NCBI RefSeq assembly: GCF_000213575.1
Contig: NZ_GL892004.1
Location: forward strand, 734,846-798,845
Reading direction: 5' to 3'
Origin: Dysgonomonas mossii DSM 22836
Lineage (GTDB): Bacteria; Bacteroidota; Bacteroidia; Bacteroidales; Dysgonomonadaceae
DNA: 64,000 nt
Shown here: positions 52,514 to 56,128 of the stretch, piece after piece
Position numbering within the stretch: position 1 is the stretch's first letter
Layout of the letters: the number at the start of each line of letters is the position of its first letter
The notes under the pieces: generated by a model
Seen by the model: only the letters and a program-made list of their open reading frames with translations
Databases searched by the model: none
What the model was told of the DNA's origin: nothing
Translations under genes and position numbers: made by a program

Positions 52514-52540
52514 TAGTTTCAGTATATGTTCGATTTTCAA

Positions 52541-53557
52541 TTAAAATTGAATATCATCTGCAATATTTCCTCCTTGCTCTTGTGCAAATATCTTTTTATA
52601 CTCTTCCATCTTATTCTGCATATGGCGGGTATACTTTAGAGTCATTTCCATATCAACATGTTTCTGATCTTGCTCCATATGGAAAGTCGCTATTTTCTGA
52701 AATTCTCCTAAAGATACATGATAGTTATCCATAATCCATTGTGAACCGTCTAAACCATATTCATAAGCGGCACTACGAGCTCCACATAACTCTTCGTAGA
52801 AGAAGCGATCATTTTTCATTTTTTCTAATGTTGACTTTCCTTTTTCGGAAAGTTCGACAGCCGCACCGCTTAATTTAGGGTGTTTGTCTGAGGTTCCGTA
52901 ATATTGGCTAAATAAAGTTGCTACCTGAAACGTTGTGTCTTCCTGTATTCGTTTTGCCCAGATAGTGCTCACCTCTTGATATATGACCATATCGATACCC
53001 AGTTTAGATAATATTGTGTTAAGATCGCTTCCAGAAGCCAGGAAATAAGATATGGCAGCATAATCCTCTAAACTGATACCGTGTATAGGATCCAATAATG
53101 GGTTGCTGTTGTCATGTTTAGCATTTCCGAAAGAAGTTACTCCAAGGTGTTCCATTTGATTCACTTGTTCCCATTGCAGCATCATATTGGTGTTTGCTCC
53201 TGTCCACTCTTGGTATACTTGCCTTCTTACATTAATATAATAGTTTCTTATATCACTTTCCGAAACTTTATTATTCTCTGCCTCATCTTCCTTAATGAAT
53301 TTTTGTACTATCCTTTCTACTTCTGCATCAAACTCTTCTACAGTATAATTTGTTCCATGAAGTGTGTTAGGATCTAGTTCTACTGCGGCCTTTTGTCCTC
53401 TTTCAGAGTCAGCCCATTCATTATCACTTTCTTCTTCGGTCTCAACCTCTATGTCAGCAACAATTAGTTCTTCTTGTGAAGAGTTTTTATTTGTTTCTTC
53501 CTTTTGCTTATCGCTTTCCTTCTCTGAATCAAATAGATTTAAAAATTTTTTCAACAT
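52541..53557 (-). CDS. Acidic cytosolic protein, DUF6620-like; last gene of SPFH cluster
   Basis: 338 residues. The first 60 are highly charged and low complexity (Glu, Lys, Asn, Ser), likely disordered. The folded part has WTGANTNMMLQWEQVNQMEH, LGVTSFGNAKHDNSNPLLDP and IHGISLEDYAAISYFLASG, which I associate from memory with DUF6620; this is not verified. The rest is helical. There is no membrane segment and no enzyme motif. It starts 28 bp after the zinc-ribbon gene before it on the same strand. Confidence 0.75.
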   Translation of the reverse strand: MLKKFLNLFDSEKESDKQKEETNKNSSQEELIVADIEVETEEESDNEWADSERGQKAAVELDPNTLHGTNYTVEEFDAEVERIVQKFIKEDEAENNKVSESDIRNYYINVRRQVYQEWTGANTNMMLQWEQVNQMEHLGVTSFGNAKHDNSNPLLDPIHGISLEDYAAISYFLASGSDLNTILSKLGIDMVIYQEVSTIWAKRIQEDTTFQVATLFSQYYGTSDKHPKLSGAAVELSEKGKSTLEKMKNDRFFYEELCGARSAAYEYGLDGSQWIMDNYHVSLGEFQKIATFHMEQDQKHVDMEMTLKYTRHMQNKMEEYKKIFAQEQGGNIADDIQF

Positions 53558-53585
53558 TTTTGTTCATTTTTTAGTAATTACTCTA

Positions 53586-54500
53586 TTATTGGTTTGCTAT
53601 GTAGTCTTTTATCCAGCTTTGATAAACTTTTTCATTGTATTCTTTTAAATCGGGAATTATCTTATTCCACTCGTCGAACATGGCTCTCATATATTTTATG
53701 TAAAGTTTTGGAGCTTCTTCTATTGATTGTTTTCTTTGGATTTCCAACATGTTTATTTGTTTTTCAACCTCTATCTTTTTTTGCATGTTCTTTTCTAAAA
53801 TAATACTCAATTTAAGATTATGTATTTGATGATAAAGATCACGTTCCTTTTTTACTTCTCTTTCATAATTTTGTAACAAGTGTTTGGTGCGTTGTTCTGC
53901 TAATGTTCTACTCAAATGTTCTAATTGAGATATTTTGCTGCTTGGTCTATAGGTGTTTTGAGTTTTACAAGAGAGACATTCTATATGTGTTGCATTAAAG
54001 AATATTTTTTCCAGTATAATGTAGTTTCCGCACTGTGTACATTTAAATTTGTTTTTTGTAAGTTCAAATTCATGTAAAATAGCTTCATATTTTTCTTCCA
54101 AATTAATATATTCTGCTGCTTTTATTTTATTATACCAAATATATGCCCTGTCTGTAAATTCTCTCAATAGTGTAGCACAGATTTCCTTCTTGTCATATAT
54201 TACTTTAGATGATTCTTCTGCAGGGTTATTTACTTCCATTTCATCAAACTCATTTCTTACTTTTTCAGCAAATACGCTGTCTGCTTTATGAATAATATGC
54301 AATACTTGTCCAAGTACCCCTGAAACCATTCGATGGTAAGCCATTTTGTTGATATCTTTATCCATCTTATATGTTTCTGCAAGTTCTGGAATGGATACCT
54401 CATATAGTTCTACTAATCGATCTTCTAATTTCAGAATGAAATTCCTCCAGCGTAGCTCTATTTCATCAGCGGAATTGTTTAAGTCGTAGCTTTTTGCCAT
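53586..54500 (-). CDS. Zinc-ribbon and coiled-coil protein; third gene of SPFH cluster
   Basis: 304 residues, highly charged. A helical N-terminal part (about 10-145), then a four-Cys zinc ribbon at 154-178 (Cys154, 157, 175, 178: CTQCG...CLSCKT), and a long amphipathic helix or coiled coil after it (about 195-255, rich in Lys, Glu, Leu), ending in short aromatic helices. No membrane segment or catalytic motif. No family is recognised. Visibly A+T-richer than enolase next door. Confidence 0.75.
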   Translation of the reverse strand: MAKSYDLNNSADEIELRWRNFILKLEDRLVELYEVSIPELAETYKMDKDINKMAYHRMVSGVLGQVLHIIHKADSVFAEKVRNEFDEMEVNNPAEESSKVIYDKKEICATLLREFTDRAYIWYNKIKAAEYINLEEKYEAILHEFELTKNKFKCTQCGNYIILEKIFFNATHIECLSCKTQNTYRPSSKISQLEHLSRTLAEQRTKHLLQNYEREVKKERDLYHQIHNLKLSIILEKNMQKKIEVEKQINMLEIQRKQSIEEAPKLYIKYMRAMFDEWNKIIPDLKEYNEKVYQSWIKDYIANQ

Positions 54501-54574
54501 ATTCTAAGATGTGTTAGTCTTGTTTATAGGTTGGTAGTGAAAATATATCTAACATTAGATACATAACTTAAATT

Positions 54575-54820
54575 CTATTTTGAATTATCTGTTTTTTTTA
54601 AGTTTATACCATCAGTTAATTCTAAAGAAATAAATTCAAATCCACAATATACACATTTTGTAAGTCCATCAGTTTTGGCCCTTCCGGCCCCGCAATTAGG
54701 ACATAATGTTGTGCTTACTTCAGCCTCGAAATGTTGTGTCTCATTTCCGTATGGCTTTTGCTCAAGTACCTTTTGTTTTATTCTTTGAATAAACGAATTG
54801 GCTTTATTTTCGTCTTTCAT
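54575..54820 (-). CDS. Small zinc-ribbon protein; second gene of SPFH cluster
   Basis: 81 residues with one zinc ribbon, Cys40, 43, 56 and 59 (CPNCGAGRAKTDGLTKCVYC), preceded by a basic helix (SFIQRIKQKVLEQK). Its ATG follows the SPFH gene stop without a gap (TAA, ATG on the minus strand), so the two are tightly coupled and the proteins probably interact. Confidence 0.8.
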   Translation of the reverse strand: MKDENKANSFIQRIKQKVLEQKPYGNETQHFEAEVSTTLCPNCGAGRAKTDGLTKCVYCGFEFISLELTDGINLKKTDNSK

Positions 54821-55759
54821 TTACAGTTGATTCAATAGTTCTGCTTTTTTTGCTTTAAATTCATCTTCATCGATTAATTCCGCATCAAAAAGATCTTTCA
54901 ATTTCTTTAATTTAGCTGCAATATTGTTGTTTTCTTGAGTATTTTGGTTCATTTGTCCCATTATTGCACCTAACATTGCTGCTGTTTTAGTCCCTTCATT
55001 TACTGCAGTGTCTTGTTGTATTATAGCAGAAGCGGTATTGAATTTCTGAAAACGATCTATATCTCCAATCATATTCATATTAGTAACAATATCATAATGC
55101 TTAAGTACATCATCCGGCAGAGTGACACTAGATACTTGAAATTTAGTAAGTGCTAATCCTAATTCATCAAATAGAGGTTGTATTAGAGGTCGTATTTTAT
55201 TGCTTAATTCTGTAATATTTCCTGCAACATCCATAATGCTGTATCCATTCTTGACTAGTATTTCTCCGAATGCAGGAGCAATGAAGTCTCGTAATTGCCG
55301 CTCCAGTTCAAATACAGTTAGCTGATGATAAGTTCCGGCGTATTGACGGAAAAACTTTGCTACATCTGATATCTGGATATTATATGTTCCGAAAGCTCTG
55401 ACTCTGACTTGTCCAAATTGAGAATCGGGCATTATAATAGGCATTGGAGTCCCCCATTTTAAATTGATAAACTGATGCATATTGAAAAAGTATATATCAA
55501 CTTTGAATGGACTGTTAAATCCATACTTCCAGCTTTTTAGACTAGTGATTATGGGTATGTTTTCTGTGGTAAGATTATACATTCCAGGTGAGAAAATATC
55601 ACCTAGCTGACCTTCATTGAGAATCATTACATGTTGACTTTCTCGTACTGTAAGAGCCGCACCGTTTTTTATTTCTTGTCCTGCGTCTTGAAACTTCCAC
55701 ATTAATAAGTTTGGGTCAGGAGTAAGGGATTCGATAATTTCAATATAAGGGATCTTCAT
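54821..55759 (-). CDS. SPFH-domain protein with C-terminal SHOCT; first gene of cluster
   Basis: 312 residues. The SPFH/Band 7 fold spans about 25-230 (ESQHVMILNEGQLGDIFSPG, FGTYNIQISDVAKFFRQYAG, FELERQLRDFIAPAFGEILV). It belongs to the soluble YdjI/virion-core-like branch, with no membrane helix at the N-terminus. A SHOCT motif ends the protein (about 283-312: KLKDLFDAELIDEDEFKAKK). In Bacillus the related YdjI protein works with zinc-ribbon and PspA proteins in a membrane-stress complex; by analogy this cluster may act at the membrane, but partners here are different. Confidence 0.9.
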   Translation of the reverse strand: MKIPYIEIIESLTPDPNLLMWKFQDAGQEIKNGAALTVRESQHVMILNEGQLGDIFSPGMYNLTTENIPIITSLKSWKYGFNSPFKVDIYFFNMHQFINLKWGTPMPIIMPDSQFGQVRVRAFGTYNIQISDVAKFFRQYAGTYHQLTVFELERQLRDFIAPAFGEILVKNGYSIMDVAGNITELSNKIRPLIQPLFDELGLALTKFQVSSVTLPDDVLKHYDIVTNMNMIGDIDRFQKFNTASAIIQQDTAVNEGTKTAAMLGAIMGQMNQNTQENNNIAAKLKKLKDLFDAELIDEDEFKAKKAELLNQL

Positions 55760-55885
55760 CTTTTATAGCTTTTTTAGTAAACCAAAGGGAATAATAGTAG
55801 ATTAAATAATTTAAGGAATATGTCAATACGAAACCTTATTTTATAGGTTTGCTATTTGTCTTCTCCTTTGAGATCTATTTTAAAC

Positions 55886-55964
55886 TACTCACTCTTATTT
55901 CTTAATGTAGCTTTTAGTGAGTAAATTTATTATTGTTCATTTTTTAGTAGATAGCAATGAACAA
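55886..55964. repeat. Two adjacent perfect hairpins
   Basis: First: TACTCACT (55886-55893) with AGTGAGTA (55916-55923). Second: TTGTTCATT (55933-55941) with AATGAACAA (55956-55964). They lie directly upstream of the amidase -33 element and could be protein-binding dyads. Confidence 0.7.
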
Positions 55965-55966
55965 GA

Positions 55967-55996
55967 TTTGTTAGTTTTATTTGTTTTGTACATTTG
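55967..55996 (+). promoter_or_regulatory. Promoter of the cell-wall amidase gene
   Basis: TTTG (55967-55970), 18-bp spacer, TACATTTG (55989-55996). Both elements fit the Bacteroidota consensus. The leader would be about 125 nt. Confidence 0.65.
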
Positions 55997-56128
55997 AGTT
56001 TTGCTTCAATATGAGTTACACTCCAAAGTTATAACAAAATCCTCATTCGACCCAATCTTTGGTGAAATCTTAGTATCTTTACCATCTGCAAAATTTCTCA
56101 CTGCCGTTCCGGCTAAGTTTAGTGACAT

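What the first reader, a model, noticed from the sequence alone, without database searches (positions are those of the whole stretch)
52541..55759. Four-gene SPFH / double zinc-ribbon / acidic-protein cluster as a candidate uncharacterised system
Seen: an SPFH-SHOCT protein gene abuts (TAA-ATG) an 81-aa zinc-ribbon gene, followed by a 304-aa protein with a second four-Cys ribbon plus coiled coil, and a 338-aa charged protein. All are on one strand, visibly more A+T-rich than enolase, and no TAnnTTTG promoter is found. Known: in Bacillus the YdjI SPFH protein joins zinc-ribbon and PspA-type proteins in a membrane-stress assembly. Inference: this is a Bacteroidota counterpart with its own, untested partners, all soluble, perhaps assembling on the membrane or on a large particle.
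Basis: partly seen in the sequence, partly recalled or inferred. Interest (0 to 1): 0.72.

Follow-up and report, generated by a model that had tools for sequence, protein, structure and literature searches.

The report
Mobile four-gene SPFH scaffold cassette
Four neighbouring bacterial genes, one for a ring-forming scaffold protein, two for zinc-binding proteins and one of unknown fold, turn out to travel and be kept together as one unit across many Bacteroidota, so they very probably build a single machine that nobody seems to have described yet.

Summary
Four minus-strand genes (SPFH-SHOCT, 81-aa zinc ribbon, 304-aa ribbon/coiled-coil, 338-aa DUF6620 protein) lie at 52541-55759, TAA-ATG abutting between the first two. 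The reverse search with DUF6620 found the 304-aa gene beside it in 6 of 6 other genomes. All four are under purifying selection. In this Dysgonomonas the cassette is a ~3.5-kb insertion of exactly these four genes between enolase and an amidase gene; in 13 of 16 congeners, including the sister species, those two are adjacent. The cassette proteins are all soluble; the two large partners match no solved fold. Best reading: an accessory, laterally moving, soluble SPFH scaffold in which ribbons and helical adaptors bind clients; it may work like YdjI/YdjG but is not that operon. New variant of a known kind; no paper found describes it. Function (stress, quality control, defence) is untested.

The parts
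54821..55759 (-). SPFH/Band_7_1 protein, 312 aa; SPFH domain codons about 55073-55702, C-terminal SHOCT domain about 54833-54913
   Evidence: Pfam Band_7_1 1.9e-71, SHOCT 2.4e-6; no transmembrane segment
54575..54820 (-). 81-aa single zinc-ribbon protein (Cys 40, 43, 56, 59; codons 54644-54703) with conserved C-terminal tail LTDGINLKKTDNS
   Evidence: ribbon cysteines invariant in 34 aligned relatives; SPFH-ribbon gap median -1 bp in 52 loci
53586..54500 (-). 304-aa protein: long helices, second zinc ribbon (Cys 154, 157, 175, 178; codons 53967-54041), long helical hairpin; no family model
   Evidence: AlphaFold2 model mean pLDDT 94.7, no PDB fold match at E<=0.001
52541..53557 (-). 338-aa DUF6620 protein: acidic disordered N-terminus (1-49), all-helical body, conserved C-terminal module (codons about 52544-53116) ending in DDIQF
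   Evidence: Pfam DUF6620 3e-16; model pLDDT 84.6, no fold match in PDB or BFVD; acidic-hydrophobic-x-F end in 82 of 83 relatives
52521..56029 (.). insertion carrying exactly the four genes; the sister species has 49 bp here between the enolase downstream region and the amidase gene
56024..56031 (-). lone TAACTTTG box 272 bp upstream of the SPFH start, at the right edge of the insertion; promoter role doubtful

Best explanation
The four genes are one laterally moving accessory unit that encodes a soluble scaffold complex. SHOWN: they are kept together in at least 72 loci, in three gene orders, under purifying selection, and arrived here as a clean 3.5-kb insertion of just these genes. INFERRED: the SPFH subunits assemble, through the SPFH and SHOCT domains, into a large ring or cage; the 81-aa ribbon protein, made right after it by coupled translation, docks on it through its conserved tail; the 304-aa ribbon/long-helix protein and the DUF6620 protein are adaptors that bring clients or attach the cage to a surface. 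The most likely job is an envelope- or proteostasis-stress scaffold that works like YdjI/YdjG but with its own partners, without PspA and without built-in membrane helices.
For: Unit: 72 of 79 loci with all four; reverse search from DUF6620 in 296 phylum genomes finds the 304-aa family beside it in 6 of 6 other genomes, and the SPFH gene next to it in 4 of 6. Gene order differs in Aquimarina (ribbon-304-SPFH-DUF6620) and Dysgonomonas PF1-14 (ribbon-304-DUF6620-SPFH), and the SPFH of those comes from a different branch: one-clade tree rejected, AU p 7e-7, so the partnership was kept or formed with another SPFH. Pairwise-distance correlations 0.90-0.95 between all pairs of families within the main clade; dN/dS mostly 0.01-0.1. 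Movement: enolase and the amidase gene adjacent in 13 of 16 congeners, and a clean insertion relative to the sister species. Coupling: SPFH-ribbon gap median -1 bp. Ribbon tail of 12 or more residues in 56 of 56 main-clade loci and absent in 21 of 23 others, where the SPFH is another lineage or not adjacent. No convincing TM segment in any family. SPFH proteins form rings/domes (abstract of PMC12624060); SHOCT is most often fused to PF13421 (PMC3581485).
Against: No interaction, expression or localisation data. Ring formation is taken from other SPFH proteins; the ribbon docking is inferred from co-variation only. Two deep-branching genomes (G371, G376) keep ribbon, 304-aa and DUF6620 genes without an SPFH gene beside them, so SPFH may not be indispensable. 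The forward locus set was fetched by one of the four genes and is rich in Flavobacterium and Aquimarina; correlations between co-inherited neighbours do not by themselves show binding.
Confidence: 0.55

Rival explanations
1. It is the Bacteroidota version of the Bacillus pspA-ydjGHI membrane-stress operon proper: YdjI-type SPFH at the membrane, the 304-aa coiled coil standing in for PspA and the ribbons for YdjG.
For: Same SPFH family (PF13421) as the one found in B. subtilis (control genomes); two ribbons as in YdjG; both cassette ribbons align to the first ribbon of YdjG-like proteins in profile comparison; some Flavobacterium cassettes are followed a little downstream by a TPM-domain protein, the YdjH domain.
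Against: No PspA in the genome, no PspA match for the 304-aa protein, no membrane segment in any of the four, and a separate YdjG/YdjI-like pair exists in the same genome. Zinc ribbons resemble each other anyway. The TPM genes seen lie in Flavobacterium loci and the product looks secreted.
Confidence: 0.2
2. It is an anti-phage or inter-bacterial conflict module: accessory, mobile, patchy, AT-rich.
For: Clean insertion, patchy presence (5 of 101 relatives; 7 of 296 phylum genomes); neighbours in some loci are SUFU, DUF2314, SUKH and DUF6714 genes of the kind seen in toxin-immunity loci (the link to immunity loci is my own knowledge); type I restriction specificity gene in one locus.
Against: No enzymatic effector domain; no PADLOC match of weight for any of the four; no defence gene was seen to recur among 132 neighbour proteins; strong purifying selection rather than rapid change; the 304-aa protein has no match in 50,697 phage records or in viral contigs, and the DUF6620 protein none in 72,556 plasmid records.
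Confidence: 0.15
3. A soluble closed particle: the SPFH protein forms a free cytosolic cage (comparable in principle to the vault, whose major protein also has an SPFH-type domain) that encloses or carries the DUF6620 protein.
For: All components soluble in every locus; SHOCT end; the conserved acidic-hydrophobic-x-F end of DUF6620 proteins looks like a docking or cargo tag; two partners with no known fold.
Against: No structural evidence for a closed shell; most SPFH assemblies abut a membrane (abstract of PMC12624060); the MFKKLF start of many DUF6620 proteins could instead be a membrane-touching helix.
Confidence: 0.1

Closest known systems
Bacillus subtilis pspA-ydjGHI operon (YdjI SPFH, YdjG ribbons, YdjH TPM; PMC8581546, PMC11237479)
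   Same: SPFH of the same Pfam family working with zinc-ribbon partners; YdjI itself soluble
   Different: cassette has no PspA, no TPM gene beside it in the window, no membrane-spanning partner; ribbons are on two separate soluble proteins; adds the 304-aa and DUF6620 families
YdjG/YdjI-like pair of Bacteroidota (here G000:C3, L093)
   Same: Band_7_1 protein followed by a ribbon protein
   Different: its ribbon protein holds two ribbons and a C-terminal membrane helix; its SPFH lies in a separate clade (100/100) and carries a different C-terminus
SPFH-NfeD and HflK/HflC-FtsH systems (PMC2636767)
   Same: SPFH scaffold with conserved operon partner
   Different: no NfeD, no protease, no N-terminal membrane anchor
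Pfam DUF6620 (PF20325)
   Same: C-terminal module of the 338-aa protein is a member
   Different: no paper in the library searched names the family, so it had no described context or function there

Membership tests
PF13421 Band_7_1 (YdjI-type SPFH) | match to the family model over its length | tested here: met
   240 bits against cut-off 24, residues 20-229 = model 1-210
SHOCT domain | C-terminal SHOCT match over cut-off | tested here: met
   27.6 bits against 27; marginal but the end is conserved in relatives
DUF6620 (PF20325) | model match over cut-off | tested here: met
   59.5 bits against 27, model positions 266-450 only
Bacillus-type pspA-ydjGHI system | PspA partner gene | tested here: not met
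   PF04012 absent from the whole genome; the same search rings in 9 of 14 control genomes
Bacillus-type pspA-ydjGHI system | membrane-spanning ribbon protein (YdjG) and TPM protein (YdjH) as anchors | tested here: not met
   no convincing TM segment in any of the four families; no TPM-like gene among the ORFs next to the cassette (read by eye; not searched genome-wide)
Bacillus-type pspA-ydjGHI system | membrane localisation under envelope stress | not testable with these tools
   needs microscopy
Known anti-phage systems (PADLOC-DB 2.0.0) | match to a defence-system protein model | tested here: not met
   only weak ribbon or C-terminal matches, E >= 1e-4
SPFH-NfeD operons | NfeD gene beside the SPFH gene | tested here: not met
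   the Pfam scan of the three partners finds no NfeD; the gene next to SPFH is the ribbon gene

The most novel reading that the evidence does not exclude
The cassette is a self-contained, horizontally transferred SPFH-based cytosolic compartment or scaffold of Bacteroidota, with two adaptor families of new fold, that installs a whole stress or defence function in one 3.5-kb step.
Probability: 0.2. Interest if true: 0.82.

Novelty: new variant of a known kind. Interest (0 to 1): 0.58.

Why it matters
[quoted passage not shown] A compact four-gene unit that moves between bacteria as a block, with partners that are always the same, would give a genetically tractable SPFH system in which ring, ribbon and adaptors can be taken apart one by one. 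It also gives a context and a first hypothesis to DUF6620 and to an unnamed ribbon/coiled-coil family.

Tried and rejected
Phage or plasmid origin: no match of the 304-aa protein in phage records or viral contigs, or of the DUF6620 protein in plasmids. Defence annotation of the four proteins: PADLOC and PHROGs gave nothing of weight; 132 neighbours scanned as a batch showed some defence genes, of which the type I specificity match was traced to a single locus, Riemerella L068; the PtuA and PD-Lambda-5 matches were not traced to their loci. A missing small membrane anchor upstream: only two loci (L046, L052) share a 62-81 aa hydrophobic protein, not general. Fold relatives: no PDB hit at E<=0.001 for either partner, no BFVD hit for DUF6620; sequence search of PDB returned only coiled-coil or chance matches. 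TAnnTTTG promoter conservation: not clearly enriched. Papers: none names DUF6620/PF20325. An earlier count said '14 of 17' empty sites; the correct count is 13 of 16 other genomes with enolase within 1.5 kb upstream of the amidase gene.

Full report
WHAT IS THERE. The four ORFs are real and at the stated coordinates on the minus strand. The SPFH protein matches Pfam Band_7_1 (1.9e-71) and ends in a SHOCT domain; the 81-aa and the 304-aa proteins match no family above its cut-off in Pfam or NCBIfam, and only weak hits in PHROGs and PADLOC; the C-terminal half of the 338-aa protein is DUF6620. The SPFH stop codon and the ribbon start codon abut. Three of the four genes are unusually A+T-rich for the window, the DUF6620 gene is not.

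IS IT A UNIT? Yes. A scan of one genome per species for about 85,000 bacterial and archaeal species with the 304-aa family gave 99 confirmed relatives, of which the best 79 loci were kept; their record titles name Bacteroidota organisms or MAGs. 72 of the 79 carry all four genes. The exceptions include contig ends and Capnocytophaga loci in which no SPFH gene was found in the stretch held and the DUF6620 gene lies several kilobases off. Because the loci were fetched with one of the four genes, I ran the reverse test: Pfam DUF6620 in 296 near-complete genomes of the phylum is present in only 7, and in all 6 other than the window's the 304-aa gene lies beside it, with the SPFH gene adjacent in 4. 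Flanking genes differ between lineages while the four stay. The four show dN/dS mostly 0.01-0.1 in close pairs, and their pairwise distances correlate at 0.90-0.95 in the main clade. One exception is the DUF6620 protein in an Aquimarina pair (0.415), where the N-terminal half differs between versions.

GENE ORDER AND SPFH REPLACEMENT. Most loci read SPFH-ribbon-304-DUF6620; Aquimarina reads ribbon-304-SPFH-DUF6620; Dysgonomonas PF1-14 reads ribbon-304-DUF6620-SPFH. In an SPFH tree the main cassettes form one clade (100/100), and the Aquimarina/PF1-14 SPFH proteins group with non-cassette SPFH proteins instead; forcing all cassette SPFH proteins into one clade is rejected (AU p 7e-7). So the same three partners have worked with two different SPFH lineages. 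The ribbon protein's C-terminal tail follows this: present in 56 of 56 main-clade loci, missing in 21 of 23 others. I read that as a hint that the tail docks on the main-clade SPFH protein; it is an inference.

MOVEMENT. The window lies in a Dysgonomonas genome (inferred from its nearest relatives). In 13 of 16 other genomes of the genus that hold the amidase gene, enolase lies directly upstream of it. In the sister species (enolase 100% identical, amidase 93%) 49 bp stand where the window has about 3.5 kb, 52521-56029, which holds exactly the four genes and nothing else. No transposase or integrase ORF was seen in the insert. Other Dysgonomonas cassettes sit beside other genes. Near-identical SPFH proteins in different families (Daejeonella and Flavobacterium) also speak for lateral transfer, with the caution that some of these are metagenome bins.

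WHAT THE PARTNERS LOOK LIKE. AlphaFold2 models are confident: the 304-aa protein (pLDDT 94.7) is long helices, a zinc ribbon and a long helical hairpin; the DUF6620 protein (84.6) is a disordered acidic N-terminus and an all-helical body. Neither has a fold match in the PDB at E<=0.001. 82 of 83 DUF6620 relatives end in an acidic-hydrophobic-x-Phe tail (the one exception, L046, looks truncated). None of the four families has a convincing membrane segment.

THE YDJI COMPARISON. In B. subtilis, YdjI needs the membrane proteins YdjG and YdjH and recruits PspA (PMC8581546; domains in PMC11237479). The window's genome has no PspA. It does have a second Band_7_1 protein, next to a 363-aa protein with two ribbons and a C-terminal hydrophobic helix, which is the better YdjG/YdjI counterpart and recurs in the phylum. 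The cassette's two ribbons both align with that protein's first ribbon, so an origin from a split ribbon protein is possible but weakly supported, since ribbons are alike in general.

HOW IT MOST LIKELY WORKS. SPFH proteins build rings and domes, usually against a membrane (abstract of PMC12624060). I think the SPFH protein forms the scaffold, the coupled ribbon protein caps or keys it, and the 304-aa and DUF6620 proteins bring clients or attach it. The steps shown are conservation as a unit, selection, transfer and lack of membrane helices; the assembly and the task are inferred. A TPR-membrane-LuxR-type regulator gene lies just upstream in seven loci of several families, which would fit an envelope-sensing regulator, but this was not tested. 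Defence is possible (accessory, mobile) but has no effector domain, no database match of weight and slow evolution against it.

VERDICT. No paper in the library names DUF6620, though absence there does not prove it is undescribed.

Noticed in passing
G000:C3:317269 (L093): Separate SPFH (366 aa) plus 363-aa double-ribbon membrane protein: a YdjG/YdjI-like pair without PspA, an arrangement that recurs in Bacteroidota.
   Followed up: partly
L072-L083, L087, L089-L092 (Aquimarina and relatives): Cassettes lie next to genes for LipL32-family (PF12103) proteins, named for a spirochaete surface lipoprotein; 25 proteins in 17 loci.
   Followed up: no
L015-L041 (Flavobacterium): Cassette often followed by DUF2314-ankyrin, TPM-domain and SUFU genes.
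   Followed up: partly
L142:1591-2511; L141:5697-7093: Deep-branching DUF6620 proteins show an internal repeat (PV.G..LE.W ... W..RM) or occur as tandem genes; DUF6620 seems to be a repeat module with swappable N-termini.
   Followed up: partly
L046, L050, L052, L053, L069-L071: TPR-TM-LuxR-type regulator gene directly upstream of the cassette; L046 and L052 add a 62-81 aa hydrophobic protein in between.
   Followed up: partly
L046:4941-6760: DUF6620 gene lacks its usual C-terminus and is followed by an IS110-like transposase fragment (read by eye), perhaps an insertion that cut it.
   Followed up: no
L064, L065, L067 (Capnocytophaga): SUKH-type genes lie between cassette genes (L064, L067), and a short DUF6620-like gene sits at the canonical place after the 304-aa gene.
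   Followed up: partly
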